Below, piece after piece: positions 1 through 44,251 of a stretch of 64,000 nucleotides of DNA. Origin of the DNA: Marchantia polymorpha subsp. ruderalis. Lineage: Eukaryota; Streptophyta; Marchantiopsida; Marchantiales; Marchantiaceae. The number at the start of each line of letters is the position of its first letter. Within the stretch, counting starts at the first letter, position 1. The DNA lies in contig AP031352.1 of the NCBI GenBank assembly GCA_037833965.1, positions 7,110,501 to 7,174,500 on the forward strand, written 5' to 3'. The notes beneath the pieces were generated by a model. It saw only the letters and a list, made by a program, of their open reading frames with translations. It was not told the origin of the DNA and did not search any database. A program made the translations under genes and the position numbers.

Positions 1-2058
1 ATCCAGGAATTGGAATCTGATCTGGACTTTTCTCAGGGACCTTGTAAGCCGATTAAATACTGCAATCAATATACAAGGCCATCCATATGGAGCTGCAATG
101 TGTTAACATTGCAGATAGACTTGCATAGACTCTTATAGATAGACTTGCAGTAAAGCTATCATGCGAAAAAATTAATAAAAGTGTAATTTAGAAGAATTTT
201 AGTTTCTCTGTATTGTCATTTCTTCCTTACTTTGCAAGTTTGATGAAAATCGTGGAGCGAAGGCTTGCTTTGTTCGTTTCAATGAATTATTTTTTTGCCA
301 GCATGATTATCTTGCGGACATAGTTGGTCAAGTTTATACGTTGATTATACAGCAGTTAAAATAACAATTCCTGTAACTGACTGCGAGCAAGTGTGTCCAT
401 CACTCTGCTAGGACAATGATAAGTCATGATATCGAGAGGCAGTACTCTCTATAGGGATGTAAATAGAGTTGGGGCATCTCAGGGGTTTACTGATGTTTAT
501 GTGCAAGATTAAGATTTTGATGTGATTTACCGATGATTTACCGGACACTGAACAGGACGTTCCTCTTCTAATTATTTTTTAAAAGTGAAAATTCCCAAAT
601 TTGAATTTTTGTTGTTCTTTTGGTCTAGTGAATGGTACTATACATACATTCTGCAATTTTTCCAGATTAATGAAAAATATAGGACTAATATATAAACAAA
701 CTTTATTACTTGCTAGTTTCACACTAATCTCAATCTAAGATCACTACTACGAAGATCATCTAGCCATGTTATTAAGCCCTAAATAGTGTACACATGTTAG
801 ACTTTTTACTCTCTTATCAATTTAAAGTGCACACACACACACACATATCACTACAAGTCATTCATCACAATACATCGATTTTATTTCTTGGCACAAATGT
901 GTAATAAAATCTAGCTTAAGACTTTGAGAATTTTACATATGTTCAATTTTCTTTTTTTATCATTATTGATGGAAAACCAGTGAGATTATTGCATAAGTTG
1001 TCAGATCAACTGATTGTAATATTTTATTAGAAAGCCTTAAGTAACTTTCCTTGACATTTGATAAAATTCTAAAACTGACGAAAAATGTTCAACCTTTACA
1101 TGTCATCCATCGAATACTATCAGATCAATCTCAGAACTCTTTACCAACACTAAAAAGAAAAAAAATACTTGCTATACTAAAAACTGTTGAGATGCAGCTT
1201 TTTTTGTTTTCTTATGTTAGAGTCAACTACTTGTGACATCTATAGTCGAAGTAATTTTCTAAGCTGTACTATGTTGCTTGTTATGATAAACATCGCTTGT
1301 TTGTAAATATATGTATTATTAATACCAGGGATACTAACTTTGGAATCCAGATCACTATTTCTAACATCCTAAGAAGATCAATGATTAATATTATATATGA
1401 AAACTTCATCTACTTCATATCATTGAGCAGAGAGATGGAAAATGACATTATCATTACACATAAGAGTTGCATGCAACTTTAATTGGAAAATTCGATTCAC
1501 GATCTATGCCATTATCCAATGTTCAAAAATAATACATCTACTACGTCAGATGAGATACTGTATATATTATCATATGTCTGTACTAAAACTTCATCTGATG
1601 GAGAAGATTTATCCATCAAAATTATGGATCTTTAAAGTAGATAAAACATTTTTTGGGTTCCAATTGATTTATACTTAACAGTTGCTTTCAATGTTCAAAG
1701 AATGCTCGTTGTTGTCTTCTAAGTTGTGCAGGTGGACAGATCAAAGATATAGCATTTTCTTGACGTTGTATTTAAATGTGCCATTCTTAAGTAGAATAAT
1801 ACATATATAAATTTTCAAACTTTTTGCATCAATTTTTTATTTCTGAAGAACGATTTATAAAAGCGTCTATTATTATGTAAAATTTTAAGATTGTATTTTG
1901 AAATAGAAAGAAATTTCCAAACAAATTAAAAATTCAAGACAAGGCTTTAAGTTTATTGCAAGGTAAATGCTTATATAATGATCGCTTGAAAATTTCTGTA
2001 GCATAATCACTCTACAACTCTATATGTCAACAAGTGTAAGTACTCAAATATCTTAGTG
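1..2058. other. Gene-free AT-rich flank
   Basis: Open frames here are at most about 78 codons, have no recognisable motif and lie in AT-rich sequence. Apart from a short CA repeat near 830 I see no RNA gene or element terminus. It is the left flank of the gypsy insertion. Confidence 0.6.
830..845. repeat. (CA)8 microsatellite
   Basis: Uninterrupted CA dinucleotides read directly from the sequence. Confidence 0.9.
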
Positions 2059-2063
2059 ATATA
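2059..2063. repeat. Left target-site duplication ATATA
   Basis: The five bases ATATA directly precede the TGTGGTA start of the left LTR and recur directly after the right LTR at 18641-18645. A 5-bp duplication is standard for Ty3/gypsy integrases. The flank is itself AT-rich, but the exact match at both predicted borders makes it convincing. Confidence 0.93.
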
Positions 2064-2566
2064 TGTGGTACCCCACTTTTGGCAATTTTGAGGAAATTAA
2101 AACATTTTTGGAAAACTGTACCCCGGCAGCATTGTAAATAGCCTTCGGTACATCAAAACAGAGTGAATCCGGAAGATCGCGGGGATTCTCGAGGGATCTT
2201 GTAGAATCTGGGATTTGGGGTGCAGTAGTAAGGTCAGGCACCACCCTCCCTGCAAGCTCCGCAGTTAGGATCTCTACGGCGCAAGGCGCAAAACCCGCCT
2301 TCGGAGGTTGCGTCCGCGGCTGTAGGGAAACCCTCGTAATTAGGTAACCCTCGGGCGCCTTGACCAAGTTAGGATCCCGTTGGAAAGAGCTCGACGCGCT
2401 GATTCCAACGAGCCCAAGAACGCTTGGAACGGACGAGGACTTAGGGAGTTATCGCTACTGGAAGAAACGGAGGCGGTCGCCTGCGGCGGAAGGAGTTCGC
2501 CACCGGCGCGAATTCCGCCTGCGCGGAAGGGGGATTCAAGTTTTGTCCTATGCGCGGACGAAGGCG

Positions 2567-3020
2567 TTCGCCTGTGCACAGGCGAAGTAGGGTTAGGGAT
2601 GGCGCGAAGTCCGCCTACGCACAGGCGTTCGCCTGTGCACAGGCACTTCGGCGTCGGCGGGAAATCCGCCTTGGGCCCTAGAAATGCGCCTTGTGAGGTA
2701 GAAAGTGTACGGCGCCTTCCGCGCCAGCGCAGCGCAGCGTACGTCGGAAGACCGCCAGAGTAATCCAATCGGTACGGACCATGCGGACGGCACGGGTGGA
2801 TGCGCTCTTGGACGGACGGAGTTGCGGCGGCGGAAGCGCCGACGGAGAGACAAGGAACGGACAGACTGGACGGAGACGGCTGACCACGGTCAACGCCTTC
2901 CGCGCCAGCGCAGCGCCGCGGACGGAATTCGCCTGCGCACAGGCGAACGCCTGTGCACAGGAGGATGTTCAGGTTCCGCGCCGGCGGAGAATCCGCCGAG
3001 GCCCCTGCCTGCGCACAGGC
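2567..3020. repeat. Cluster of GCCTGTGCACAGGC-type palindromes in U3
   Basis: A 14-bp palindrome, GCCTGTGCACAGGC or its TGCGCA/TACGCA variants, occurs at 2569-2584 (within a perfect 20-bp palindrome 2567-2586), 2613-2626, 2631-2644, 2931-2944, 2949-2961 and 3007-3020. More copies lie inside the U3 ORF at 4732-4745, 4749-4761 and 4780-4793. The same set is present in the 3' LTR. Such spacing could be binding sites for a dimeric protein or a spreading short repeat; the sequence does not say which. Confidence 0.85.
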
Positions 3021-3307
3021 AGGAGTTGAATTTTCGTCCGACATGCGGACACACGCGTCAAGGCAGAAGGAGATTGGCCGAGGGGCGGTACGAACAAGTG
3101 TACCGCGCAAGGCGGAAAACTCGCCTTCGGCGCTACGCCCCCATGTCCGGAGGGTGACACGCTCGCGGAGTTCAAATCCGCCAATTCGAGCGTGAGAGTT
3201 TAATCGACGACGGCGGAGCGTGAAGCCGCGCGTGAGAGCGAAGACCGTTCCAGCGTACAGCCGGCGCGGCCATCAAGTGAGACGTTCTTCACGACCAAGA
3301 GACGACC

Positions 3308-6300
3308 ATGACCTTCGACCGGGCGGCGGAGAGCGTCCCATTCTTGAATTCGCGATTCCAATCTCTTGTGCGCGCTGCGCGCATCCATCTGCTGGCTGCG
3401 GACCATTCTCGTCGTCGTCGCACAGGAGATTTCTTGTTGATTGAGGGAGAAGTGAGTGCGCGTGATTTGGAATTGAGAGCGATTAGAGTTTGCCGAGAGA
3501 GAAGGAAACGCGGACAGTGCGGAAGTAGAATGAGCGGGCGAGCGAACCCCAGGAACGCAATGACGAGACCGAGCAGATTGCGGATGGTGCCACTTCGCCT
3601 GCCGCAGAACGGGCTGCGCGCTTTCGAAGAGCGCTTAATAGCAAGAAAGCTCGATTTCTTGCTATGGGGATGGAATTACATCTGCGCGAATATGGTGCGC
3701 GAGTGGCTAGAGCCACAGGGACCACCCTCGCGCGGATTGCGTCCGCATGTTGACCGGTGGACAGTCCAAGATTGGGCGCAGGCGTTGGGAAGATGTGCTG
3801 GCATGCCAGGGCATCTCCTTTTCGACAGCGAGAGCATCAAGGTGACCAAGCAAGAAGAAGCGCAATTTGTGGAGCTGTTCAAGACCGGGAGGTCTACCAA
3901 GAATGGGTACAGGACCCGTGATTACAAAGATCGATTTCGCCGGACTTTGTCCGCGGCGCTGATGCAATTACTGCAGCCGCACCGCGCCTGCTACATCACA
4001 TTGTGGCAGGTCTCTTTTGTGGAGTGCGTCATCGAGGGAACTCCAATTCACTGGGCGAGCATCCTGCACAGAGTGATGCGACAGCACGCGTTTGAGGAGA
4101 AGGGGGGAACGCTAAACCATCTTTCTCCTTTCCTCATCAATTTTTATCGACAGCGGAATTGTTTGACAGCGGCGGAGCTTGAACATTTTCCGCCATTGTC
4201 CATCGACCATCCCGGGAAGTATGTGCGGGAGAACGAGGTCGACACTGATGCGGAGGAGTCACCGACTTCTACCCCATCAAGACGGAGGGATGAAGGGAGA
4301 CACACCCCTGCGGCGCGAGTGCCGCGGAAGCGGCGATGGAGGGAAGAGGCCGAAGAGGAGCAGCATCAAGAACTCTCTGCTCCCATTCGACCGCGGCCGC
4401 TGTGCGAGCCATACAGCCGGCCGAAGCAGAAGGCACGCAGACTGGTGTTGCCAGCTGACAGTGCAGACACGGCGACGATTGCGACGGAGATAGGAAGTGC
4501 GTCGCCAGAGAGACGAGAGGAAGCGCGGACGACCGCAGGAGCGACGGGCCACGCTGCAACCTCGTCGGGAGAGAGGCCGCCTACGGGCCAAGGGCCTCCG
4601 GAGTTACCACGTGCGATGCGGACAGATGTTCCGTTTGCGCACAGGCGAACCTCCGCGGACGGACGAGCCTCCGCGGATCGGCGAACACAAGTGGACGTGG
4701 ATCTACGCTTACGCGTGGGAAGGAGCAGTCCGCCTGTGCACAGGCGCTCGCCTGTGCACAGAATACCTCCACACGTGCCGCCTGTGCACAGGCAAGAATC
4801 ACCCCCGTTCCAACGTAGGAAGGGGAAGGAGCCGGCGGAAGAACCGCCTACGAGACAGCGGCCCTCGGGGCCAGACCCTCCGGCGCACCACGCGCCGCAA
4901 TTCGCGCCTTCGGCGCCAGGGCCTTCGAGCCGAGGGGATACGAGCAGAGAGCGTGCGGAGGCCGCACCATCGGCGGGAAGTACGCCGATAGATGCGCCTT
5001 CGGCGGTAGGGCCTATAGGCCAAGGAGCATCGGGCGTGCGGCCCCCGGCCATGTCGCCTTCGGCGATAGATGTCCGCGGCGCTACGCCTGCGGCGGACAA
5101 GGCGCCGGCACATGCGCCTGCGCACGGGCCGGGCACAGCCCCCACGGACCGATCAAGGGAGCAGCAGACGGAGGAGCGGAGTGACTGTCCGCGGGACGAC
5201 ATCTCGATGCGCGATGCGCAATCCAACCCCGCGCAGCCACCCTCCGCTCGATCGCCCTCGGCGACGGACGACGGCGACAGAGAGAATGCGGTGGGCAATC
5301 AACCAGCGAGCGACGGGGATGCCGCTCGGATACATTCGCCTTCCGCCTTAGACATTTTGGCGACGAGCAGCGAGGCTGCAGCCGTGCCTTCGCAGGCAGC
5401 ACACGTCGAGGACGTGCAGCCCCACTCGGGGCAGTCGCCGACGCAATCAATGGCGACTGAAATTCTCCACTCGGATGATGAGGACGGAGGCTCCACGGAA
5501 GAAATGTCAGGAGCAGAAGACACCGAGGAGGAGGAGGAGGAAATTGTTGGAGCGCCGGCGGCGGCGCTCTCTGAGCAGGTGATTCCGTTGCTGCGGTACT
5601 TGGATCGCAAGGTCGATAAATACGCCGACCCACTCCAGCCGGGATCTTACATCGAGTTAGTGCGCAGGCGGACTCGCACTAAAGTCCACACCAGCAAGCT
5701 ATTAGCTAGAGTGGACCAGGAGTTGAGGGACTTGAAGGAGAAGCATGAGTGCTTGTGGGGACAGTACAAGCTTAATCAGAAATTCTACAAGCACTCCGAG
5801 AAGATGAAGGATGAGAAACTGGGCGAGCTCACCAAGGAGCAGGTGAAGGTCAAGGAAGCACTCAACTCTGAGCAGGCCGAGAATCGGATTTTGTCAGAGG
5901 AGCTCGTGCGACAGACGCGGTTGTTGGAACAATGTCAGCTCGCACGGCAGGCGGATGAAGAATTAATCCGCAGTTTACAGTCAGAGTGTGGCGAATTGAG
6001 GGCGCAACGTGCTGAAGCCGAATCGCAATTAGTGACCATTGAAGAGGATCGCAGGAAGGAGGCGGATCGCACGAAGGTGGAGACGGCGAAGCGAGTCGCC
6101 CACTGTCTCAAGGGCTACGCCCACTGGGAAGTGAAGGCGCAGGAGAAACTCACACTGCGTGAGTTTGAATTGCGCGCAGCCGGGTTGTTGTCAGGCGACA
6201 GTAGGAGTCGGCGGAAGGTAGCGAAGAAGCTCGAGGCCTTTCTGTCGAAGGCACAGGATACCATGTCCGCCCTCGAGGGGGAGGTGTCCGCGGCGTTGCA

Positions 6301-6430
6301 GCGGTTGGGACTGCGTAGTCGAGCGGAAGAGTGGCAGGGTAGGGAGTTAGTGCGCGGCAGTCGGCCGCGCAGGAGACGTAGTACAGGTTCCGCGGAGTGT
6401 AGTGTAGCGTGGTTCCGTGCAGGCGTGTAG
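3308..6430 (+). CDS. U3-encoded ORF, 1040 aa, coiled-coil protein of unknown function (5' LTR copy)
   Basis: This is a long open frame entirely inside the LTR, ending 37 nt before the TATA box. Residues about 97-300 form a Trp/Arg-rich folded-looking region whose pattern (a Trp-Gln-Val-Ser-Phe stretch, a Gly-Thr-Pro-Ile-His-Trp-Ala motif, then a His-Leu-Ser-Pro-Phe-Leu-Ile block) resembles the putative plant transposon protein domain found beside plant gypsy elements; this is a by-eye resemblance only. Residues about 310-720 are Pro/Arg/Ala/Ser-rich and probably disordered, with repeated PVHR units coded by the DNA palindromes. Residues about 723-745 are very acidic, and about 800-940 form a Glu/Lys/Leu/Gln-rich coiled coil. 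The tail is Arg-rich. The start is the first ATG of the frame after 3300. The two LTR copies differ at only two residues. I do not know its function; a structural, Gag-accessory or env-replacing role are all guesses. Confidence 0.75.
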   Translation: MTFDRAAESVPFLNSRFQSLVRAARIHLLAADHSRRRRTGDFLLIEGEVSARDLELRAIRVCRERRKRGQCGSRMSGRANPRNAMTRPSRLRMVPLRLPQNGLRAFEERLIARKLDFLLWGWNYICANMVREWLEPQGPPSRGLRPHVDRWTVQDWAQALGRCAGMPGHLLFDSESIKVTKQEEAQFVELFKTGRSTKNGYRTRDYKDRFRRTLSAALMQLLQPHRACYITLWQVSFVECVIEGTPIHWASILHRVMRQHAFEEKGGTLNHLSPFLINFYRQRNCLTAAELEHFPPLSIDHPGKYVRENEVDTDAEESPTSTPSRRRDEGRHTPAARVPRKRRWREEAEEEQHQELSAPIRPRPLCEPYSRPKQKARRLVLPADSADTATIATEIGSASPERREEARTTAGATGHAATSSGERPPTGQGPPELPRAMRTDVPFAHRRTSADGRASADRRTQVDVDLRLRVGRSSPPVHRRSPVHRIPPHVPPVHRQESPPFQRRKGKEPAEEPPTRQRPSGPDPPAHHAPQFAPSAPGPSSRGDTSRERAEAAPSAGSTPIDAPSAVGPIGQGASGVRPPAMSPSAIDVRGATPAADKAPAHAPAHGPGTAPTDRSREQQTEERSDCPRDDISMRDAQSNPAQPPSARSPSATDDGDRENAVGNQPASDGDAARIHSPSALDILATSSEAAAVPSQAAHVEDVQPHSGQSPTQSMATEILHSDDEDGGSTEEMSGAEDTEEEEEEIVGAPAAALSEQVIPLLRYLDRKVDKYADPLQPGSYIELVRRRTRTKVHTSKLLARVDQELRDLKEKHECLWGQYKLNQKFYKHSEKMKDEKLGELTKEQVKVKEALNSEQAENRILSEELVRQTRLLEQCQLARQADEELIRSLQSECGELRAQRAEAESQLVTIEEDRRKEADRTKVETAKRVAHCLKGYAHWEVKAQEKLTLREFELRAAGLLSGDSRSRRKVAKKLEAFLSKAQDTMSALEGEVSAALQRLGLRSRAEEWQGRELVRGSRPRRRRSTGSAECSVAWFRAGV

Positions 6431-6466
6431 CGTAGTGCAGTGTAGTGTTAGGTAGGACTTAGAAGG

Positions 6467-6474
6467 TATAAAAT
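6467..6474 (+). promoter_or_regulatory. LTR TATA box (TATAAAAT)
   Basis: A strong TATA motif lies 37 nt after the U3 ORF stop, so transcription should start near 6495-6505. This sets the U3/R border and places the long ORF in U3. It would drive the genomic RNA covering R, U5, gag-pro and pol. Confidence 0.7.
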
Positions 6475-6629
6475 AGTTCCAGGCGTTTTGCCTGGGGTTC
6501 TTTCCCAAACTCAGAAGTATAGTTCAGGAACCCATTTCCTTTGCGTGTTTGTGTCCTTGAGTTCTGTCACCACGCACGAGGAGTTACAACTTAGCGTTCC
6601 GCATTTTGTAGCTGAAGGCCTTCGGCCGA

Positions 6630-7347
6630 ATGTTCAGAGCTAGTCCATTGGTTAGAGACTTGAGTAGTTCGGATCTGCACCTGCGGGTGACTGCCGATGC
6701 TCAGAGCCAGTGACTAGTTAGATACTTGAACAGTTTCGCCCCTACACCTTCGAGTGTTCCTTTCTGATTGTACTCCTTGGGATTTTTCCCCTGAATGCCA
6801 AAGTGAAGTTTTGCTACTTCGTGTAAGCCTTGGTTGTAAATTCAGGTTACGCTGCAGCAGGTGCCTTGAGGGTAACCCCTGTAGTATTTCTGGGAATGAC
6901 AAGTGCCTGAGAATTCAAACTCTTCAATAGACTGTTGTTGTGTTACTGGAATGTTTCACAGTGAGTCCTTCAGTGTGGACCTGTGTTCTCTGCGCGTTTT
7001 GTGAGTTGAGAGTGTTGTTCACCGCGTCTGAGTGACTTCGATCCGAAGTAGGTAGTCCAAACCGGGTTTCCTACACTAGCAGCAAGCTAGTGGAAGCGTT
7101 GTAAAAGCCGGAGTTGGAAGTCACTGCCCGCAGCTTTGCCGAGTGTGCTCGTGAGAGACGTTCCCCCTGAAATCTTGAAGTAGAGGTCCTAACGGATCTC
7201 TGGGTTGTGTTTCTGTAGTTTCAGGTGTGTGTGTGTGTGTGTGTTACGCTGCACTGTGCGACCTCCGAGTGCGCTCCGAGTGGACACTTGCAGTATTTCT
7301 GGGAGTGACAGTCGCCTGAGAATTCAAACTCATCAATAGTCTGTTAA
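6630..7347 (+). repeat. Degenerate direct repeats in the R/U5 leader
   Basis: Two repeat pairs are visible. About 6846-6940 resembles about 7243-7347; shared blocks are GTTACGCTGCA, AGTATTTCTGGGA and CCTGAGAATTCAAACTC followed by TCAATAG. About 6628-6672 resembles about 6698-6735 (CAGAGC.AGT, TTAGA.ACTTGA). The same pattern recurs in the 3' LTR. Confidence 0.7.
7225..7244 (+). repeat. (GT)10 microsatellite in 5' LTR
   Basis: There are ten GT units here and twelve in the 3' LTR (18420-18443). This is the only length difference I saw between the LTRs. Confidence 0.9.
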
Positions 7348-7463
7348 ACGTGACACTTTGTACCCTGTGTGTTCCTCTGTCCCTGTGGGTTCGACCTTTC
7401 TACCACTATATTGCAGTTTTAGCCTTTAGTGGGTTATTACATAAGAAGCCGACAACTTCTTTT

Positions 7464-7480
7464 TGGCGCCGCTGCCGGGG
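7464..7480 (+). promoter_or_regulatory. Primer binding site, tRNA-Asp type
   Basis: TGGCGCCGCTGCCGGGG starts 22 nt after the LTR end. Plant tRNA-Asp(GTC) ending CCCCGGCAACGGCGCCA would pair at 16 of 17 positions; the variant base is the C at 7472. tRNA-Asp priming is known for Athila-type gypsy elements. The site is not repeated after the 3' LTR, as expected. Confidence 0.85.
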
Positions 7481-7527
7481 ACAGTTGCGTCAACACCGGG
7501 GTTTTTACGAGCAGCCATGCTCGGTGA

Positions 7528-10380
7528 ATGTCGACTGGGGCTGGCGGGAGCAACCTAAGTGCTAGAGCTGTCCGCAAGTTCCGACGAGATTCAGAGAAGG
7601 CCGTGGAAGAGACACGGCGTCAAACCAAGAAAACACCAAAAAGAGTACCTAAGCCTAGTTCGGCCGACATCCTTGGGGAACCTACCCCCGGCGACTCGGA
7701 ACCAAACTTGGTGCTTACAGTTCTACTAGATATTCCTTGCACGGACCCGCCTAGTGAAGTAGAACCGACCGCCCGAGGACCGTCGACAGACACACTGATG
7801 GCGGACGGACAAGCCAATGTGCGGCTACCTCAGCCGATTACTAAACATTCCTACCCGAAGTACAAAGGGAGTGGGGATGACGACGATGCAGATTCATACA
7901 TCAAGTTATTCGAGTCGGTGTCTATTGCCAATCGCGAGATCGCAGACGACGACCGACTAAGGATCTTTCCAAGCCTTCTGCGGAAGAAAGCGAGGAGTTG
8001 GTATAATCACGAGAGCATCGATCCGACTGGGTTGACAACATGGGCCCAGCTGAAGGAGAAGTTCCTTCGTCGCTTTCGCGAGCTCGGCTACGACAGCCGG
8101 GTTTTGACGAAGTTACGTAATTTGCAGCGAGAGAAGAAGGAGAGTCTGCGTGACTACACTGAGAGATTTATGGACCTCCTCGACAGAATACCGAAAACAG
8201 GACCAGGGTCCCCTTTCTCGGTACAACAAGCTGTGGATTGGTACGTGACCGGTTTAACTCGGGAGATGGAGACTTTTTGCCGACGCAGCAAGTGCGACAC
8301 TATTGAGGATGTGATTGCATCGGCAGAAGCCTTCGAAACTTCCACTCTCAACCGCAGAGGGAGAGAGAGACGGGAGTCGAAGGAGCGCAAACCGAAGGGA
8401 GGGCGAAGACGGCGTAGAGGTACAACTCCGTCATCGGAGGAATCGTCTTCGGACGAGAACCGTTCTTCATCCGAAGAAGAGGAAACCTCATCGTCGGAGG
8501 AGGAGAAGAAGAGGAAGAAGCATGGGTCAGCGAAGAAAAAGGGCATCCGACGAGTGACTACGGACAGAGCGCCGGGAGATATAGCTTCGAAGATGGAGAC
8601 CCTTGTGAAGGACTTCGCCGATCTCAAGGTTCAAGTGGTAGGCGGGCATGATCGCCGAAAATCACCCGGGAGAGTGCGAGCGAACTTATGGTGTACTACG
8701 TGCGGGGCGGTGGGACATGCAAACACCGAGTGCCTTACCACCCGGCCGTCATATCCAGTCAATGCAGTAGAGTGGGCGCAACCGTACTATGGAGAGCACC
8801 CTCAGTACTATGGAGAGCACCCTCAGTACTATGGAGAGGCTAGCGAAGAGACAGCCTACGCCGTCCAGTCGGTGCCTACCCCTCCTGCGGTTTCAGCAAT
8901 GCAAGTTCCACGATATATTCCGGTGGATCGGGCCACTACGGTACCTGTGAGGCGGAGAGCACCTCCAGGGACGTTTGACCCACCGCCACCGCGAGCTTGT
9001 TATAATTGCGGGGAAGTTGGGCACTTCTCACCGCAGTGTCCCCATCCAAAAAGGCGAAACGATTATGCTCCGACATGTAGTAATTGCAAGAAGGTCGGGC
9101 ACACTGCGCCAGAGTGTGATCAGCCACCAGTCCCTCGGCCAGTGGTACGATTTGTGAACACTCCTGCCAAGGAGGACGTGCAAGTTAACCAGGTCGAAGT
9201 AGGTTCAGACGGGGATGGCGAAGACGAAGAATGGCCGGCTGAAGAGGTTATGTGCGCACGGGTCGAAACTCGTAGCTCCAAGAAATCCAAGGAGCAAGAG
9301 CGTGACACTCGCAAGCACGAACGGAGAACCGCCGACCGGACGGGAAAAGGAAAGGAGAAGACATCCAGCAAGTCCGACTCGCGACCTGCTCGGAGGTCTT
9401 CGACTACGCGGGAGGCACCAGCAGTGCGCCCCCAGGCAGCAGTCGAGGACGAGCCAGTGCGCCTACTGAAACGGGACTATGCTCCGGATATCCGCAACGA
9501 GGTAGCCAACCTGTTGCAGGAAGCGATCCGCACTCAAAAGGATCCACCGCGGCCAGACCTGACATCCTCCCTTGGGGCGAAGTTGGCAGCCACCGTGGAA
9601 CCTCGCAGAGCGTCGCCGACCCCGGCGCCCCAACGCGCCCACTATGACTTGGTTGAGGATCTCGGGAGTCGAAAAGTGAACATTACGTTCAAGCAGCTCT
9701 TGGAGGACAATAAGACGTATCGGAGAATGTTGATGCTTTCGCTACGGCATCCGCGGAAGCCGCGCGCGTCCACATCCTCTCAAGTATATCAAGTGGAGAG
9801 CGAAGACCAAGGGCCACCCGAGATCGATGTGGAGATAGCAGGATGTTGTGTACGCAGAGTGCCAATCGACTCTGGATCAGGAGTCAACATAATGACGGAG
9901 GATACAGCGAGAGCCTTGGGGTTCAGTCAATACGAACCCTCGAAGCGTGTGTTGAGATTAGCGGATCAGACGCGGAGAATGCCTGCAGGTATGCTGCGCA
10001 ATGTCAAGACAACCATCGGGGGTGCGGACTTTCGGTTGACGTATATCATCCTTCAACCGATGATGAAGCAGGGCTATGACGTTCTGCTCGGGCGACCATG
10101 GCTATATGGTGCACAAGTCAGATGTGACTGGCGAAGACATCGCCTTAAGTTTCCTCATCCTTCGGAACCGACCAAAACCATTACAGTGCCCTGGAATAGG
10201 GTCAGGCACGAAGGAGAGACCCCATCGACAAGTGCAGGTTACACATCGGGCGAGGACAGTGAGTCGACCGCGCGATCGGATTCCAGTGGTACCGAATCCG
10301 ATTACTTCGTGGGATTCGTTGCCTGCTGTTCGGTGGAAGAAGAAGAAGAGACGGAAGCTATTCAGCCGGAAGACGAATAG
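7528..10380 (+). CDS. gag-pro: Gag-protease polyprotein (950 aa) of the gypsy element
   Basis: The frame starts 47 nt after the primer site. Residues about 107-270 form the retrotransposon Gag (capsid-like) domain, with the WYNHES and FLRRFRELGY-type blocks. Residues about 300-335 are an acidic Ser/Glu tract between basic stretches. Three zinc knuckles of CX2CX4HX4C form lie near residues 389-402, 491-504 and 518-531, for RNA packaging. Between the first two is a short tandem repeat of QYYGEHP units near 421-440. The aspartic protease follows, with catalytic DSGSG near residue 781 and the LLGRPWL flap-partner motif near 853. The C-terminus is acidic. The ORF ends with TAG at 10378-10380, in frame with pol. 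Confidence 0.95.
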   Translation: MSTGAGGSNLSARAVRKFRRDSEKAVEETRRQTKKTPKRVPKPSSADILGEPTPGDSEPNLVLTVLLDIPCTDPPSEVEPTARGPSTDTLMADGQANVRLPQPITKHSYPKYKGSGDDDDADSYIKLFESVSIANREIADDDRLRIFPSLLRKKARSWYNHESIDPTGLTTWAQLKEKFLRRFRELGYDSRVLTKLRNLQREKKESLRDYTERFMDLLDRIPKTGPGSPFSVQQAVDWYVTGLTREMETFCRRSKCDTIEDVIASAEAFETSTLNRRGRERRESKERKPKGGRRRRRGTTPSSEESSSDENRSSSEEEETSSSEEEKKRKKHGSAKKKGIRRVTTDRAPGDIASKMETLVKDFADLKVQVVGGHDRRKSPGRVRANLWCTTCGAVGHANTECLTTRPSYPVNAVEWAQPYYGEHPQYYGEHPQYYGEASEETAYAVQSVPTPPAVSAMQVPRYIPVDRATTVPVRRRAPPGTFDPPPPRACYNCGEVGHFSPQCPHPKRRNDYAPTCSNCKKVGHTAPECDQPPVPRPVVRFVNTPAKEDVQVNQVEVGSDGDGEDEEWPAEEVMCARVETRSSKKSKEQERDTRKHERRTADRTGKGKEKTSSKSDSRPARRSSTTREAPAVRPQAAVEDEPVRLLKRDYAPDIRNEVANLLQEAIRTQKDPPRPDLTSSLGAKLAATVEPRRASPTPAPQRAHYDLVEDLGSRKVNITFKQLLEDNKTYRRMLMLSLRHPRKPRASTSSQVYQVESEDQGPPEIDVEIAGCCVRRVPIDSGSGVNIMTEDTARALGFSQYEPSKRVLRLADQTRRMPAGMLRNVKTTIGGADFRLTYIILQPMMKQGYDVLLGRPWLYGAQVRCDWRRHRLKFPHPSEPTKTITVPWNRVRHEGETPSTSAGYTSGEDSESTARSDSSGTESDYFVGFVACCSVEEEEETEAIQPEDE

Positions 10381-10386
10381 CAATTA
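10378..10386 (+). promoter_or_regulatory. Candidate leaky amber stop, TAG CAA TTA
   Basis: The gag-pro stop TAG is directly followed by CAATTA, an exact fit to the type I readthrough context UAG CAR YYA defined in tobacco mosaic virus. The next in-frame stop is the end of pol at 13221. Readthrough would give a Gag-PR-Pol product of about 1897 residues. Recoding by stop suppression is documented in plant LTR elements (soybean SIRE1). The motif is seen; its use here is inferred. Confidence 0.8.
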
Positions 10387-13221
10387 ACTGTGGGACTGGG
10401 AAGGAGTGAGACGAGTCACACCGAGGGCATTGTCGACCCTAGTGACTGTCACGAAGTACAACTCAGTCCCGGCAAGTGCTTGAAGGTATCAAGCGCAGTG
10501 AGAGGAGACGAGCTAAGGAAAGTACAGGCGTTCCTTAGCCACTATGTCGACGTCTTCGCCTGGAAGATCGAGGACATGAAGGGGATACCTGCACGGTATG
10601 GGGAGCACCGTATCGATTTACTGGACGACTCAGTACCCATACGACAGCGCCAGTATCGCCTCAACCCAAAGTACTCCTTGCTAGTGAAAGAGGAGATAGA
10701 TAAGTACTTGAGCGCTGGTATTATTTATCCTGTGCTCAGCAGTGAGTGGGTGTCGCCGATTGTTATCGTACCCAAGAAGTTGACGGGTAAGATACGAGTG
10801 TGTCAGGATTTCCGGAAGTTGAATGCGGCAACACGCAAGGATCATCACCCGTTACCATTCACGGATGCCATTCTAGACCATGTCGCAGGACATGAATGTT
10901 ATAGCTTCCTGGATGGGTTCTCAGGTTACAATCAGGTGTCTATCCGTGAACAGGACAAGGATAAAACTACGTTCACAACCGACTGGGGAACTTACGCATA
11001 CCACAAGATGCCCTTCGGTCTGTGCAACGCGCCTGCCACCTTTCAACGGATGATGACCAATATCTTTCAGGAACAACTGAGGAAGTTCCTAGAAATATTC
11101 ATAGATGACTTCTGTGTCTTTGGGAAGCGGTCTGAACACCTAAGTCACTTGAAGCAGACTTTCGATAAATGTAGAGAGAGCAGTTTATCGCTGCATCCCG
11201 AGAAGTGCTTTTTCTTCATGACTAGTGGGATCTTGTTGGGTCATCGGGTCTCGGCAGAAGGCATTGCGGTGGACATCGAGAAGGTCAAGGTTATACTCGA
11301 GCTTGAGCCACCCGCGAATCTAAGAGAGCTGCGAGCATTCCTGGGTCATGTGGGCTACTATCGAAGATTCATACACATGTATGCAATACTGGCGGCGGAC
11401 CTGACCAAGTTGTTGAAGAAGGACGAGCCTTATGCTTGGGGTGCGAACCAGCAGACAGCATTTGAAGCTCTGAAAGCGAAACTCACGACTGCTCCCGTAC
11501 TAAGGAGTCCAGACTGGAATCGACCATTCCATGTTTACGTTGACACTTCGGCATTCGCCATCGGTGTAGTACTGAGTCAAAAGGATGACAACAAAAAGGA
11601 CTACCCGATCTACTTCGCGAGCCGACAACTGTCTCTAGCAGAGCGGAAGTACACCACGACGGAGAGAGAAGCGTTGGGGATGGTGTACTCCTGTAAAAAG
11701 TTCCGTCACTACCTAATCTGTTACGAGTTTGTGTTCCATGTGGACCACTACGCATTGCAACACCTAGTTAAGAAAGCCGACCTATCCGGTCGAATCGCCA
11801 GGTGGGTGTTATTACTACAAGAGTTCACCTACACAGTCCAGACCAGGAAAGGGGTGCACCACGAAAATGCGGATTACTTGTCCCGATTATGGACACAGCC
11901 GACAGAGGAGGAATTGGTGGACGATTTTCCAGATGAAGAGTTATTTCAGTTGTCTACAGGACATGAGTCCCGCTATGCCGACCTGTATCGATATCTGCTA
12001 ACCCTCCAGTGCCCCGAGGGCATGGATTTGGAACAGCGAACTGTCTTTATTCATAAGGCAGGCCCGTACCAACTCCAGCAGGGGGTTTTGTTCAAGAAGA
12101 TGGCGGATGAGCGCTTATGCAGATGCCTGGAGGAATCAGAAGTACCAAGAATAGTGAGTGCGATGCATACAGAGGAGGCGGGTGGACACTATGCCACCAG
12201 GAACACGGTCACAAAGATCCTAAATGCGGGATATTGGTGGCCGACCATGTTTAAGGATGTTCTCGATTACATCCGCAAGTGCGACAGTTGCCAGAGGACG
12301 GGGAGACCGACGCCTACAACACGCTGGCCCCTGACTCCCATCATGCCTCTAGCACCTTTCGAAAAGTGGGGTATTGACTTTGTAGGGCCGATACAACCAG
12401 TGACTAGAAGTACACGAAGGCGCTACATTCTGGTAGCAACGGACTACGCCACCAAAATGGTAGAGGCCAGGGCCACCAGAAGGGATGATGCTGCCACAGT
12501 GGCCGCATTCTTGTTTGAGTCGATCATCACACGCTACGGATGTCCCTTAGAGCTAGTGAGCGACCGGGGCACGCATTTTCTGAATCAGATCATCGAAGAT
12601 CTGACACGGTACTTCCACATCAAGCACCGGAAGACTACTCCATACAATCCTAAGGCAAATGGACTGACGGAGAAGTCCAATGGACTGCTGTGTAAAATAC
12701 TACTCAAGGTCACGGTGAATCACGCTCACGACTGGGATACGAAGCTAGCAGCCGCTCTATGGGCGTACCGCACAGCTGAGAAGATCACGACCAAACAGAC
12801 ACCATACTTTCTGGTGTATGGGCAACACCCGATCCTCCCAATCGAATTTGAAGTACCCACACATCGAACGATGGATTTGCAGAGGATGGGCGCAGAGGAG
12901 AGTCAGCTCTACAGGTTACAGGAGGTCACGCTGCTGGATGAGAGGAGAAGAGACGCCGAAGATCGCACCAGGAAAATCCAGCTCCGCCGAAAGGAGAGGT
13001 ACGATAAAAAGATCAAACCGGTACTACTGCAGGCGGGTGATTTGGCATTGCTCTACGACAGCAGGCATGCCAGATTCCCAGGCAAACTGCACCTAAGGTG
13101 GATGGGACCTTACAGGGTTGTCGAAGTCTTCCCGAATGGGTCCATCCAACTTGCGGACCTGGCCGGCGATTTGTTAGGCACCCGAGTGAACGGGTGGCGG
13201 TTGAAGAAATACCACATGTGA
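10381..13221 (+). CDS. pol: Pol: reverse transcriptase, RNase H, integrase (946 aa downstream of the readthrough stop)
   Basis: This is in the same frame as gag-pro. There is no ATG near the 5' end (the open frame begins right after the amber stop), which supports expression by readthrough. RT is at residues about 70-320, with the FIDD catalytic box near 239. RNase H starts near 377 (HVYVDTS, then the TTEREAL block). Integrase has an HHCC zinc finger (His pair near 595-605, CDSCQR near 633) and the D,D,E core at WGIDF near 662, VSDRG near 725 and GLTEKSN near 764. A GPY/F-like module (WMGPYRV) lies near 907, close to the C-terminus, with no chromodomain. No frameshift or stop interrupts it. 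Confidence 0.95.
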   Translation, partial: QLTVGLGRSETSHTEGIVDPSDCHEVQLSPGKCLKVSSAVRGDELRKVQAFLSHYVDVFAWKIEDMKGIPARYGEHRIDLLDDSVPIRQRQYRLNPKYSLLVKEEIDKYLSAGIIYPVLSSEWVSPIVIVPKKLTGKIRVCQDFRKLNAATRKDHHPLPFTDAILDHVAGHECYSFLDGFSGYNQVSIREQDKDKTTFTTDWGTYAYHKMPFGLCNAPATFQRMMTNIFQEQLRKFLEIFIDDFCVFGKRSEHLSHLKQTFDKCRESSLSLHPEKCFFFMTSGILLGHRVSAEGIAVDIEKVKVILELEPPANLRELRAFLGHVGYYRRFIHMYAILAADLTKLLKKDEPYAWGANQQTAFEALKAKLTTAPVLRSPDWNRPFHVYVDTSAFAIGVVLSQKDDNKKDYPIYFASRQLSLAERKYTTTEREALGMVYSCKKFRHYLICYEFVFHVDHYALQHLVKKADLSGRIARWVLLLQEFTYTVQTRKGVHHENADYLSRLWTQPTEEELVDDFPDEELFQLSTGHESRYADLYRYLLTLQCPEGMDLEQRTVFIHKAGPYQLQQGVLFKKMADERLCRCLEESEVPRIVSAMHTEEAGGHYATRNTVTKILNAGYWWPTMFKDVLDYIRKCDSCQRTGRPTPTTRWPLTPIMPLAPFEKWGIDFVGPIQPVTRSTRRRYILVATDYATKMVEARATRRDDAATVAAFLFESIITRYGCPLELVSDRGTHFLNQIIEDLTRYFHIKHRKTTPYNPKANGLTEKSNGLLCKILLKVTVNHAHDWDTKLAAALWAYRTAEKITTKQTPYFLVYGQHPILPIEFEVPTHRTMDLQRMGAEESQLYRLQEVTLLDERRRDAEDRTRKIQLRRKERYDKKIKPVLLQAGDLALLYDSRHARFPGKLHLRWMGPYRVVEVFPNGSIQLADLAGDLLGTRVNGWRLKKYHM

Positions 13222-13245
13222 GTGTTCGCGTGGGCGCTCACAATT

Positions 13246-13256
13246 GAGGAGGGGGG
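13246..13256 (+). promoter_or_regulatory. Polypurine tract GAGGAGGGGGG
   Basis: An 11-nt purine run ends two bases before the 3' LTR, the standard place for the plus-strand primer. Confidence 0.9.
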
Positions 13257-14502: not shown

Positions 14503-17500
14503 ATGACCTTCGACCGGGCGGCGGAGAGCGTCCCATTCTTGAATTCGCGATTCCAATCTCTTGTGCGCGCTGCGCGCATCCATTCGCTGGCTGCGGACCA
14601 TTCTCGTCGTCGTCGCACAGGAGATTTCTTGTTGATTGAGGGAGAAGTGAGTGCGCGTGATTTGGAATTGAGAGCGATTAGAGTTTGCCGAGAGAGAAGG
14701 AAACGCGGACAGTGCGGAAGTAGAATGAGCGGGCGAGCGAACCCCAGGAACGCAATGACGAGACCGAGCAGATTGCGGATGGTGCCACTTCGCCTGCCGC
14801 AGAACGGGCTGCGCGCTTTCGAAGAGCGCTTAATAGCAAGAAAGCTCGATTTCTTGCTATGGGGATGGAATTACATCTGCGCGAATATGGTGCGCGAGTG
14901 GCTAGAGCCACAGGGACCACCCTCGCGCGGATTGCGTCCGCATGTTGACCGGTGGACAGTCCAAGATTGGGCGCAGGCGTTGGGAAGATGTGCTGGCATG
15001 CCAGGGCATCTCCTTTTCGACAGCGAGAGCATCAAGGTGACCAAGCAAGAAGAAGCGCAATTTGTGGAGCTGTTCAAGACCGGGAGGTCTACCAAGAATG
15101 GGTACAGGACCCGTGATTACAAAGATCGATTTCGCCGGACTTTGTCCGCGGCGCTGATGCAATTACTGCAGCCGCACCGCGCCTGCTACATCACATTGTG
15201 GCAGGTCTCTTTTGTGGAGTGCGTCATCGAGGGAACTCCAATTCACTGGGCGAGCATCCTGCACAGAGTGATGCGACAGCACGCGTTTGAGGAGAAGGGG
15301 GGAACGCTAAACCATCTTTCTCCTTTCCTCATCAATTTTTATCGACAGCGGAATTGTTTGACAGCGGCGGAGCTTGAACATTTTCCGCCATTGTCCATCG
15401 ACCATCCCGGGAAGTATGTGCGGGAGAACGAGGTCGACACTGATGCGGAGGAGTCACCGACTTCTACCCCATCAAGACGGAGGGATGAAGGGAGACACAC
15501 CCCTGCGGCGCGAGTGCCGCGGAAGCGGCGATGGAGGGAAGAGGCCGAAGAGGAGCAGCATCAAGAACTCTCTGCTCCCATTCGACCGCGGCCGCTGTGC
15601 GAGCCATACAGCCGGCCGAAGCAGAAGGCACGCAGACTGGTGTTGCCAGCTGACAGTGCAGACACGGCGACGATTGCGACGGAGATAGGAAGTGCGTCGC
15701 CAGAGAGACGAGAGGAAGCGCGGACGACCGCAGGAGCGACGGGCCACGCTGCAACCTCGTCGGGAGAGAGGCCGCCTACGGGCCAAGGGCCTCCGGAGTT
15801 ACCACGTGCGATGCGGACAGATGTTCCGTTTGCGCACAGGCGAACCTCCGCGGACGGACGAGCCTCCGCGGATCGGCGAACACAAGTGGACGTGGATCTA
15901 CGCTTACGCGTGGGAAGGAGCAGTCCGCCTGTGCACAGGCGCTCGCCTGTGCACAGAATACCTCCACACGTGCCGCCTGTGCACAGGCAAGAATCACCCC
16001 CGTTCCAACGTAGGAAGGGGAAGGAGCCGGCGGAAGAACCGCCTACGAGACACCGGCCCTCGGGGCCAGACCCTCCGGCGCACCACGCGCCGCAATTCGC
16101 GCCTTCGGCGCCAGGGCCTTCGAGCCGAGGGGATACGAGCAGAGAGCGTGCGGAGGCCGCACCATCGGCGGGAAGTACGCCGATAGATGCGCCTTCGGCG
16201 GTAGGGCCTATAGGCCAAGGAGCATCGGGCGTGCGGCCCCCGGCCATGTCGCCTTCGGCGATAGATGTCCGCGGCGCTACGCCTGCGGCGGACAAGGCGC
16301 CGGCACATGCGCCTGCGCACGGGCCGGGCACAGCCCCCACGGACCGATCAAGGGAGCAGCAGACGGAGGAGCGGAGTGACTGTCCGCGGGACGACATCTC
16401 GATGCGCGATGCGCAATCCAACCCCGCGCAGCCACCCTCCGCTCGATCGCCTTCGGCGACGGACGACGGCGACAGAGAGAATGCGGTGGGCAATCAACCA
16501 GCGAGCGACGGGGATGCCGCTCGGATACATTCGCCTTCCGCCTTAGACATTTTGGCGACGAGCAGCGAGGCTGCAGCCGTGCCTTCGCAGGCAGCACACG
16601 TCGAGGACGTGCAGCCCCACTCGGGGCAGTCGCCGACGCAATCAATGGCGACTGAAATTCTCCACTCGGATGATGAGGACGGAGGCTCCACGGAAGAAAT
16701 GTCAGGAGCAGAAGACACCGAGGAGGAGGAGGAGGAAATTGTTGGAGCGCCGGCGGCGGCGCTCTCTGAGCAGGTGATTCCGTTGCTGCGGTACTTGGAT
16801 CGCAAGGTCGATAAATACGCCGACCCACTCCAGCCGGGATCTTACATCGAGTTAGTGCGCAGGCGGACTCGCACTAAAGTCCACACCAGCAAGCTATTAG
16901 CTAGAGTGGACCAGGAGTTGAGGGACTTGAAGGAGAAGCATGAGTGCTTGTGGGGACAGTACAAGCTTAATCAGAAATTCTACAAGCACTCCGAGAAGAT
17001 GAAGGATGAGAAACTGGGCGAGCTCACCAAGGAGCAGGTGAAGGTCAAGGAAGCACTCAACTCTGAGCAGGCCGAGAATCGGATTTTGTCAGAGGAGCTC
17101 GTGCGACAGACGCGGTTGTTGGAACAATGTCAGCTCGCACGGCAGGCGGATGAAGAATTAATCCGCAGTTTACAGTCAGAGTGTGGCGAATTGAGGGCGC
17201 AACGTGCTGAAGCCGAATCGCAATTAGTGACCATTGAAGAGGATCGCAGGAAGGAGGCGGATCGCACGAAGGTGGAGACGGCGAAGCGAGTCGCCCACTG
17301 TCTCAAGGGCTACGCCCACTGGGAAGTGAAGGCGCAGGAGAAACTCACACTGCGTGAGTTTGAATTGCGCGCAGCCGGGTTGTTGTCAGGCGACAGTAGG
17401 AGTCGGCGGAAGGTAGCGAAGAAGCTCGAGGCCTTTCTGTCGAAGGCACAGGATACCATGTCCGCCCTCGAGGGGGAGGTGTCCGCGGCGTTGCAGCGGT

Positions 17501-17625
17501 TGGGACTGCGTAGTCGAGCGGAAGAGTGGCAGGGTAGGGAGTTAGTGCGCGGCAGTCGGCCGCGCAGGAGACGTAGTACAGGTTCCGCGGAGTGTAGTGT
17601 AGCGTGGTTCCGTGCAGGCGTGTAG
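14503..17625 (+). CDS. U3-encoded ORF, 1040 aa (3' LTR copy)
   Basis: Same protein as at 3308-6430, with two amino-acid differences (Leu to Ser near residue 28 and Gln to His near residue 516). This copy lies downstream of pol and within the predicted genomic RNA, so it is the one most likely to be translated, from a spliced or subgenomic RNA or from an internal start. It occupies the place where Athila-type elements carry an env-like ORF, but no signal peptide or membrane segment is evident here. Confidence 0.75.
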   Translation: MTFDRAAESVPFLNSRFQSLVRAARIHSLAADHSRRRRTGDFLLIEGEVSARDLELRAIRVCRERRKRGQCGSRMSGRANPRNAMTRPSRLRMVPLRLPQNGLRAFEERLIARKLDFLLWGWNYICANMVREWLEPQGPPSRGLRPHVDRWTVQDWAQALGRCAGMPGHLLFDSESIKVTKQEEAQFVELFKTGRSTKNGYRTRDYKDRFRRTLSAALMQLLQPHRACYITLWQVSFVECVIEGTPIHWASILHRVMRQHAFEEKGGTLNHLSPFLINFYRQRNCLTAAELEHFPPLSIDHPGKYVRENEVDTDAEESPTSTPSRRRDEGRHTPAARVPRKRRWREEAEEEQHQELSAPIRPRPLCEPYSRPKQKARRLVLPADSADTATIATEIGSASPERREEARTTAGATGHAATSSGERPPTGQGPPELPRAMRTDVPFAHRRTSADGRASADRRTQVDVDLRLRVGRSSPPVHRRSPVHRIPPHVPPVHRQESPPFQRRKGKEPAEEPPTRHRPSGPDPPAHHAPQFAPSAPGPSSRGDTSRERAEAAPSAGSTPIDAPSAVGPIGQGASGVRPPAMSPSAIDVRGATPAADKAPAHAPAHGPGTAPTDRSREQQTEERSDCPRDDISMRDAQSNPAQPPSARSPSATDDGDRENAVGNQPASDGDAARIHSPSALDILATSSEAAAVPSQAAHVEDVQPHSGQSPTQSMATEILHSDDEDGGSTEEMSGAEDTEEEEEEIVGAPAAALSEQVIPLLRYLDRKVDKYADPLQPGSYIELVRRRTRTKVHTSKLLARVDQELRDLKEKHECLWGQYKLNQKFYKHSEKMKDEKLGELTKEQVKVKEALNSEQAENRILSEELVRQTRLLEQCQLARQADEELIRSLQSECGELRAQRAEAESQLVTIEEDRRKEADRTKVETAKRVAHCLKGYAHWEVKAQEKLTLREFELRAAGLLSGDSRSRRKVAKKLEAFLSKAQDTMSALEGEVSAALQRLGLRSRAEEWQGRELVRGSRPRRRRSTGSAECSVAWFRAGV

Positions 17626-17661
17626 CGTAGTGCAGTGTAGTGTTAGGTAGGACTTAGAAGG

Positions 17662-17669
17662 TATAAAAT
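17662..17669 (+). promoter_or_regulatory. TATA box of the 3' LTR
   Basis: Copy of the motif at 6467. Here it could drive transcription out into the right flank. Confidence 0.65.
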
Positions 17670-18640: not shown

Positions 18641-18645
18641 ATATA
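18641..18645. repeat. Right target-site duplication ATATA
   Basis: Matches 2059-2063 exactly and follows the terminal TTATTACA of the 3' LTR. Confidence 0.93.
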
Positions 18646-43669: not shown

Positions 43670-44212
43670 GTAAGAAAATTTTAAAAAGCCATTGCCATCA
43701 GGTGAAATCTCTCCAAAGAGTCATGGGAACAAACATACGATACATATGGATGTGTGTAGCTATTATCAACGAGCTGACCACCACACATGAGGAGAGCTCA
43801 AGATGTCTGAAATTTGTTGAAGATTGATGACGATACCCAAATAAGAAGTTTGATAAGAAGTATGTAAACCAGTATTGACATACTGATTGAAACTGTGATC
43901 GCTGAGACCCACTAGACTCGGCGATAGAAAAAAAATATTTTGCTTTTCAATAATAGCAGACCTTTGATGAAAACGGCAAACCAATTGAAGTGTGATTGAA
44001 AGCGAGTTTCAAAAGTCTCAAGGTTTTTAATGGTTATGCAGCACGATGTCAAAGCGCCGTGGAAAGAGCCCCCAACTAGTCGTTAGGGAGGAAAAGTAAT
44101 AGCTGCGCAACGATGTTTTCCACAATTTTCAATTCCAATTTGAGTATGTGGATGAAATATGAGGATATCGCCACTATTGGTTTAGATCCGCCCCGGAGGA
44201 CAGGAAGCCTTA

Positions 44213-44251
44213 ACCTCATGGTGTGTGAATGGCCGAAGCCAATTCCCGTCC
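44213..44251 (-). repeat. Dispersed repeat, copy A (inverse of 63326-63364)
   Basis: 39 nt are the exact reverse complement of 63326-63364, 19 kb away. Copy B continues into AAGGGTTCAAAT, which looks like a tRNA B box, so a tRNA-derived SINE is possible. Confidence 0.8.

What the first reader, a model, noticed from the sequence alone, without database searches (positions are those of the whole stretch)
3308..6430. A 1040-codon ORF lies wholly inside U3 of each LTR
The sequence shows an intact frame in both LTRs, ending just upstream of a TATA box, with two residue differences between copies. Known parallels of U3-coded proteins are few (mouse mammary tumour virus sag; nef partly in U3). In plant gypsy elements extra ORFs normally lie in the internal region. 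Here the env position is empty and the ORF sits past the polypurine tract, so it is copied with the LTR. It may be a new accessory-gene arrangement, with a transposon-protein-like N-part, a disordered middle and a coiled coil.
Basis: partly seen in the sequence, partly recalled or inferred. Interest (0 to 1): 0.88.

Follow-up and report, generated by a model that had tools for sequence, protein, structure and literature searches.

The report
Selected gene inside retrotransposon's long repeats
A mobile element in a liverwort carries a whole protein-coding gene inside each of its two terminal repeats, an unusual place for a gene, and comparing copies shows that natural selection has preserved the protein.

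Summary
The window carries a young Ty3/gypsy element with 5.4-kb LTRs (99.8% identical, TSD ATATA). Each LTR holds an intact ORF wholly in U3, ending 36 nt before the TATA box. The likely start is Met85 (window 3560), giving 956 codons, not 1040.
The host genome could be searched (241 Mb, 9 contigs; the named relatives of the protein are all Marchantia). An exact 28-mer from the ORF occurs 2201 times. Of 48 pol copies scored, 13 had a listed ORF copy beside them; of the other 35, six were fetched and all six had it. In copies chosen by pol or by non-coding R-U5, amino-acid-changing variants are about four times rarer per site than silent ones (ratio 0.24-0.29; 0.97-2.02 in shifted frames). A diverged lineage (49% protein identity) has the same layout. 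A solo LTR keeps the frame open.
So this is a real accessory gene under purifying selection, carried in U3 like MMTV sag. The protein has a conserved N-terminal domain of no known family, basic motifs, a low-complexity middle and a long, probably coiled-coil helix. A nuclear trans-acting role is inferred; no RNA data were available. New variant of a known kind.

The parts
2059..2063 (.). 5-bp target-site duplication ATATA, left copy
   Evidence: flank comparison
2064..7441 (+). 5' LTR (5378 bp), TGTGGTACC...TATTACA
2064..3559 (+). U3 leader upstream of the likely start codon: no TATA motif, probably non-coding
   Evidence: no TATA; codons 1-84 show little or no coding constraint (small counts)
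3560..6430 (+). likely true U3 gene, 5' LTR copy: Met85 onward, 956 codons
   Evidence: ATG present in all 8 copies aligned; constraint begins here; 7 Marchantia gene models start at this Met
3560..4243 (+). conserved N-terminal domain, residues 85-312
   Evidence: dN/dS 0.17-0.22 to 7 diverged copies; gap-free local alignment to 11 of 12 relatives tested
4244..5512 (+). Ala/Pro/Arg/Ser-rich, probably disordered middle with basic motifs and an acidic run, residues 313-735
   Evidence: composition; fastest-evolving part
5696..6190 (+). single long helix, probably coiled coil, residues about 797-961
   Evidence: AlphaFold2 model of residues 736-1029, mean pLDDT 79, pTM 0.32; no coiled-coil predictor was run
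6467..6475 (+). TATA box TATAAAATA of the 5' LTR promoter, after the ORF
7464..7481 (+). primer-binding site TGGCGCCGCTGCCGGGGA (tRNA-Asp type by recall)
   Evidence: sequence
7528..10380 (+). gag-protease ORF (950 codons)
   Evidence: Pfam Retrotrans_gag and zf-CCHC above cut-off, aspartyl protease just below its cut-off
10378..10386 (+). gag stop UAG CAA UUA, in frame with pol: probable read-through signal
   Evidence: same codon at 536 of 536 matched places in the genome
10381..13221 (+). pol: RT, RNase H, integrase (946 open codons)
13246..13256 (+). polypurine tract GAGGAGGGGGG
   Evidence: PPT-LTR junction found 472 times in the genome
13259..18640 (+). 3' LTR (5382 bp)
14755..17625 (+). 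likely true U3 gene, 3' LTR copy (956 codons); the copy that the genomic RNA would contain
18641..18645 (.). 5-bp target-site duplication ATATA, right copy

Best explanation
This is a genuine accessory gene of an abundant, recently active Ty3/gypsy family in a Marchantia-like liverwort. It lies entirely in U3, so reverse transcription copies it into both LTRs. Steps shown: the U3 position, an open frame in most copies seen, purifying selection on the protein within and between lineages, and persistence of the frame in a solo LTR. Steps inferred: the protein is made from the 3' LTR copy by a spliced or subgenomic mRNA, or from a TATA-less promoter in the 1.5 kb of U3 before the start (which would also let 5' and solo LTRs express it). 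The product, with an N-terminal domain, basic motifs, a flexible middle and a probably oligomerising coiled coil, most likely works in trans in the nucleus on the element's own DNA or RNA (transcription, silencing escape or nuclear entry).
For: U3 anatomy. Longest simulated ORF 523 codons in 500 runs versus 1040. Copies chosen by pol (window + 6): 26 silent and 19 changing sites in codons 85-1040, ratio 0.24, against 0.97 and 1.07 in shifted frames. Copies chosen by non-coding R-U5 and intact in the C-half (window + 20): 67 silent and 61 changing in codons 545-1030, ratio 0.29, against 2.02 and 1.32, Fisher p 6e-10 and 2e-6; with the 8 broken copies added (29 sequences, stop codons skipped) 0.29 against 1.56 and 1.57. 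Diverged copies: dN/dS 0.17-0.22 in the N domain. Same LTR layout in diverged L039. Of 48 pol copies, 13 have a listed ORF copy beside them and 6 of 6 fetched from the other 35 have it too. Solo LTR L005 with TSD TGCTT and open frame. Long helix. Basic motif PRKRRW, with like motifs in most relatives that cover the place (by eye).
Against: No transcript or peptide data. Nuclear location rests on motif shape only. The N domain has no recognised family and its model is poor (pLDDT 40). No TATA motif in U3 before the ORF, and the one candidate splice acceptor upstream is not conserved in two of the diverged copies (by eye). Of 30 R-U5-anchored LTRs, 8 have a stop, frameshift or truncation in the part seen, and 1 of 6 fetched pol elements has a premature stop, so single insertions persist without it. 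All 7 diverged copies carry 1-8 stops, and some pairs among them have pN/pS up to 0.76 (N) and 0.83 (C). Non-coding controls are not all near 1: in the first set one of three non-coding U3 frames gave 0.36 and R-U5 0.45-0.68; frame 0 against pooled R-U5 gave p 0.027. In the pol-chosen set the N domain has only 5 silent and 1 changing site, and in residues 740-1030 the +1 frame is as low as the true one (0.33, 0.39).
Confidence: 0.6

Rival explanations
1. The gene is real but its product is a structural or movement protein (env-like replacement or particle component) rather than a nuclear regulator.
For: It is the only gene after pol, the position of env-like genes in plant elements (PMC7264820). 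A long helix, probably a coiled coil, fits an oligomeric structural protein.
Against: No transmembrane or signal segment was noticed by eye in the translation (no predictor run). Basic motifs and the charged middle resemble nuclear proteins more.
Confidence: 0.2
2. U3 acts only in cis as DNA or RNA (long promoter or packaging region) and the open frame is a by-product of GC-rich repeats.
For: U3 is GC-rich with short palindromic repeats inside and outside the frame. Two antisense ORFs of 256 and 310 codons also exist. Some non-coding control frames also give low ratios (0.36-0.68).
Against: Frame-specific constraint: 0.24-0.29 in frame and 0.97-2.02 in shifted frames. Gap-free N domain in 11 of 12 relatives tested. 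Simulated chance ORFs never passed 523 codons.
Confidence: 0.03
3. Selection acted on a host or helper version of the gene, and LTR copies are passively carried captures.
For: Named relatives are annotated as ordinary Marchantia genes.
Against: Family copies L003, L005 and L008 lie between LTR ends, and diverged L039 has an LTR start, TATA and R-U5-like sequence. Gene model P0018 starts with residues V-V-P-H-F-W, the translation of the LTR's first bases (by eye). Constraint is seen among LTR copies themselves. No single-copy host homologue was seen, but none was searched for systematically.
Confidence: 0.07
4. The gene is specifically an anti-silencing factor like the VANC proteins of Arabidopsis VANDAL elements (recalled), binding the LTR repeats.
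For: High copy number and young LTRs. Basic motifs plus a long helix. Short repeats in U3 that could be targets.
Against: No sequence relation tested or found; no methylation data.
Confidence: 0.1

Closest known systems
Mouse mammary tumour virus sag (and Naf) in U3 of the LTR
   Same: Whole accessory ORF in U3, duplicated with the LTR; MMTV has a second U3 promoter, P2, for it (PMC9412291, passages).
   Different: Vertebrate betaretrovirus with env, unrelated protein. Here a plant Ty3/gypsy element without env and a frame of 956 codons. Promoter use unknown here.
Extra ORFs (aORFs) of plant Ty3/gypsy elements: Grande gene23, RIRE2, Retand ORF4, PvRetro13 ORF2
   Same: Extra protein after pol of unknown function. 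The review reports nuclear location for Grande gene23, an SMC domain in PvRetro13 ORF2 and a transposase-28 domain in Retand ORF4 (PMC7264820, parts 1 and 2 of 3 read).
   Different: Those lie in the internal region between pol and the 3' LTR and the four named are antisense. This one is sense and inside the LTR. No PF04195 match.
Rice Retrosat2, RIRE3 and RIRE8 ORF0
   Same: Long LTRs (about 3 kb or more) and an extra ORF that evolves faster than gag-pol (PMC3485330, passages).
   Different: ORF0 lies upstream of the gag-pol ORF; the passages do not place it in the LTR. No sequence comparison made.
HIV nef (recalled)
   Same: Accessory gene reaching into U3.
   Different: Only partly in U3; unrelated protein.

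Membership tests
Ty3/gypsy LTR retrotransposon | gag, protease, RT, RNase H, integrase in gypsy order | tested here: met
   Pfam domains in order; protease match just below its cut-off
Ty3/gypsy LTR retrotransposon | LTRs, PBS, PPT and short TSD | tested here: met
Tat-type elements with additional RNase H | extra RNase H domain (PF13456) | tested here: not met
   no PF13456 match at E<=1 in the pol frame, while a Tripterygium relative has it
U3-encoded accessory gene (MMTV sag type, by position) | complete ORF within U3, upstream of the LTR's TATA box | tested here: met
   diverged copy L039
U3-encoded accessory gene (MMTV sag type, by position) | protein produced from an LTR or spliced transcript | not testable with these tools
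   no RNA data available
MMTV Sag protein family | sequence homology to Sag | tested here: not met
   the 5 families listed for 29 members at E<=0.1 include no superantigen
Plant aORF proteins with transposase-28 domain (Retand ORF4 type) | PF04195 match | tested here: not met
   no match in 29 members at E<=0.1 or 16 members at E<=10; remote kinship stays open
Env-like plant aORF | sense ORF between pol and 3' LTR | tested here: not met
   37 nt between pol and 3' LTR
Env-like plant aORF | transmembrane segments | not tested
   no predictor run; none seen by eye

The most novel reading that the evidence does not exclude
Each LTR of this family, including solo LTRs, is a self-contained gene unit: a U3 promoter drives a trans-acting nuclear protein that keeps the family active. 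The many LTR copies would then be a dispersed gene family that survives loss of gag-pol, a transposon-encoded regulator that spreads and persists as promoter and gene in one.
Probability: 0.25. Interest if true: 0.9.

Novelty: new variant of a known kind. Interest (0 to 1): 0.74.

Why it matters
Genes wholly inside an LTR are known from few elements (recall; MMTV sag), and the review of extra ORFs in plant elements describes them in the internal region in the two of three parts that I read (PMC7264820). Here selection on such a gene can be measured directly, because one genome holds many copies (536 exact gag-stop matches, 2201 exact N-domain matches). The layout has testable consequences: the gene is copied twice per insertion, survives in solo LTRs, abuts the promoter, and must be expressed in a way that differs from gag-pol. 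It also suggests that the 26 Marchantia 'hypothetical proteins' found as relatives are mostly LTR genes, which was checked for only a few.

Tried and rejected
Chance ORF in GC-rich DNA: rejected by simulation and by frame-specific constraint. A first selection proxy from protein data alone (conservative replacements against simulated neutral change) was replaced by DNA counts once the genome answered; it was mostly clear for N and C domains, weak for P0003 and P0015, and mixed for the middle. A first within-family count used loci partly ranked by ORF similarity, which favours low change, so it was repeated on sets chosen by pol or by R-U5. N-domain fold: model too poor to search, so no fold search was run; the helix model was not searched because such helices match many proteins. 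No solved structure matches the A3 profile. Weak Pfam matches were set aside as low-complexity or coiled-coil noise: Inj_translocase in the window protein (E 0.029, below cut-off), and in one or two relatives Extensin_1, SCNM1_acidic, CENP-K, FtsX_ECD and a few weaker ones. No sign of kinship with gag. Pol in viral contigs: nothing. Codon usage favours the true frame only slightly. The diverged LTR remnant at 26876 (-) was compared as a possible ORF-less relative; only its 5' part aligns convincingly, so it says little.

Literature: among the titles and abstract openings listed I saw no plant element with an ORF inside the LTR; two searches returned no paper. Subscription papers are mostly missing from that library. 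Seen: PMC7264820 parts 1-2 of 3; passages of PMC9412291, PMC11963269, PMC3485330, PMC10714607, PMC9985172; all others by listing only.
Full report
What is there. The element spans 2064-18640. The LTRs are 2064-7441 and 13259-18640, 99.8% identical, with seven point differences and one 4-nt difference in a GT run, so the insertion is young. TSD ATATA flanks it. After the 5' LTR come a PBS at 7464, a gag-protease ORF (7528-10380) and pol (10381-13221) with RT, RNase H and integrase. Pol ends 37 nt before the 3' LTR, and the purine tract GAGGAGGGGGG lies just before it. Within each LTR the only TATAAAATA is at 6467/17662. The ORF 3308-6430 (twin 14503-17625) ends 36 nt before it. It is therefore wholly in U3.

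Chance. Among 500 simulations of the LTR with an order-2 Markov model, the longest ATG ORF in six frames averaged 188 codons and never passed 523; the real one is 1040.

Relatives. Protein searches found 28 relatives, 26 annotated 'hypothetical protein' of Marchantia polymorpha and 2 unnamed. Only the roughly 8000 candidates sharing most words were scored, and low-complexity words may crowd out distant kin, so absence elsewhere is weak evidence. One gene model, P0018 (94%), begins with residues V-V-P-H-F-W after a short lead, the translation of the LTR's first bases (read by eye), and P0017 matches LTR sequence upstream of the ORF (E 5e-4). Pol relatives reach 77% over 73% of pol in Riccia sorocarpa.

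The genome. After several busy answers the window's own genome could be searched: 241 Mb, 9 contigs. Protein search with the ORF scored 44 of 13076 candidates and all 44 had the frame open, but this ranks intact copies first. Therefore copies were also chosen by other parts of the element. By pol: 48 of 4932 candidates were scored, at 99-100% identity, one with a stop. Thirteen of these 48 had an ORF copy at an LTR distance. Of the other 35, the first six listed were fetched: all six had the ORF at the expected place, and five were open throughout; L042 has a premature stop. The remaining 29 were not examined. By the non-coding R-U5 stretch: 40 of 2735 candidates scored, 30 fetched. Two of the 30 are the window's own. 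In the last ~500 codons 22 of 30 are intact, five have one or two stops, one changes frame (L024) and two lack most of the frame (L023, L031). Exact-match counts: N-domain 28-mer 2201, gag stop 536, PPT-LTR junction 472. The excess of N-domain matches over twice the gag count suggests many solo LTRs or fragments, though stretches that vary differently are not strictly comparable. One solo LTR was verified: L005, with TSD TGCTT and an open frame.

Selection within the family. Codons with two forms that differ by one base were counted. Chosen by pol (window plus L040-L045, 7 sequences): codons 85-1040 have 26 silent and 19 changing sites, ratio 0.24 per site; frames +1 and +2 give 0.97 and 1.07. 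Chosen by R-U5 and intact in that part (window plus 20): codons 545-1030 have 67 silent and 61 changing, ratio 0.29; shifted frames 2.02 and 1.32 (Fisher p 6e-10 and 2e-6); R-U5 itself 0.64-1.01. With the eight broken copies added (29 sequences) the ratio is 0.29 against 1.56 and 1.57. Codons 1-84: 0.82 (2 silent, 5 changing). Results that cut the other way: in the small 740-1030 stretch of the pol-chosen set the +1 frame is as low as the true frame (0.33 and 0.39), while the larger R-U5 set separates them clearly (2.22 and 0.21); and in the earlier set of 12 one of three non-coding U3 frames gave 0.36 and R-U5 0.45-0.68, with frame 0 (0.25) against pooled R-U5 at p 0.027.

Selection between lineages. 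Seven diverged copies (L039, L046-L051), chosen by me from the P0001 list mainly for long open stretches, were compared with the window copy. dN/dS (Nei-Gojobori) is 0.17-0.22 in the N domain, 0.39-0.49 in the middle and 0.17-0.47 in the C part. dS is 0.7-1.7, partly saturated, so these are rough. Among the diverged copies themselves pN/pS has a median of 0.29 (N, range 0.17-0.76), 0.72 (middle) and 0.40 (C, range 0.24-0.83) over 21 pairs. Residues 33-84 give pN/pS 0.78 over all pairs against 0.31 for 85-312. All seven carry 1-8 stops, so they are relics whose lineages had been under selection before.

Start codon. Constraint starts at residue 85, the ATG there is present in all 8 copies aligned, and 7 Marchantia gene models start there. 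Indels upstream are mostly multiples of three, so a short upstream extension in some lineages is not excluded.

Same place in a diverged lineage. L039 (49% protein identity) has an LTR start TGTGGTA at 485, 5' LTR sequence 71% identical to the window's, the ORF match at 1622-4327, TATAAA at 4382 and R-U5-like sequence after it, cut off by an inverted younger LTR piece. The U3 position is thus probably older than the split of these two lineages.

Protein. Residues 85-312 form a conserved domain with no Pfam family and no solved relative by sequence; its model is poor (pLDDT 40, mostly helical). The middle is rich in Ala, Pro, Arg and Ser with basic motifs such as PRKRRW and an acidic run. Residues about 797-961 form one long helix, the greater part at high confidence, read as a coiled coil.

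How it may work. The 5' LTR copy lies upstream of the element's TATA box, so only the 3' LTR copy would be part of the genomic RNA. As the last cistron it needs a spliced or subgenomic RNA, or its own promoter. MMTV offers a precedent: U3 holds sag, driven in B cells by a second U3 promoter, P2 (PMC9412291, passages). No TATA motif was found in U3 before the ORF, so a promoter there would be TATA-less. Nuclear action is inferred from basic motifs and from what is reported for aORF proteins of other plant gypsy elements (PMC7264820).

Verdict. Observation confirmed, interpretation largely supported, with a shorter coding region. It is a new variant of a known kind: an accessory gene, but in U3 of a plant Ty3/gypsy element.

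Noticed in passing
10378-10386: gag-protease and pol are in one frame, separated by UAG CAA UUA, the leaky stop context of tobacco mosaic virus (recalled). With the flanks fixed and the codon left free, the genome count stays 536, so 536 of 536 have TAG.
   Followed up: partly
G000 C2:31348187-31381761, C3:22619739-22642156, C4:10351176-10373600: Gag-stop copies at regular steps of about 11.2 kb, which is the element minus one LTR: head-to-tail arrays that may share LTRs, perhaps from unequal recombination.
   Followed up: no
25672-26876 (-): Diverged LTR remnant starting TGTGGTAGCC; aligns to this element's U3 (score 284 against a maximum of 200 in 100 shuffles), best in its first ~600 bases; neither the ORF nor R-U5 is detectable.
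   Followed up: partly
44173-44293 (-): U6atac minor-spliceosome snRNA, 71.9 bits.
   Followed up: no
52662-53636 (-): ORF with Nodulin-like and MFS domains, probably an exon of a host transporter gene.
   Followed up: no
2569-2584 and 4731-4746: Perfect 16-bp palindrome CGCCTGTGCACAGGCG and related short repeats occur both in the non-coding U3 and inside the ORF's fast-evolving middle; possible self-spreading repeats or binding sites.
   Followed up: no
P0023 (Marchantia polymorpha gene model): Has the same N domain (71% identical over 220 residues) but an unrelated-looking C-terminal part, possibly a different element family or a gene-model fusion. Its genome search did not complete.
   Followed up: no
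P0036 and other Riccia sorocarpa pol proteins: Pol up to 77% identical in Riccia, yet no Riccia relative of the U3 protein was found: the gene may be younger than this pol lineage, or unannotated, or missed by the word-limited search.
   Followed up: no
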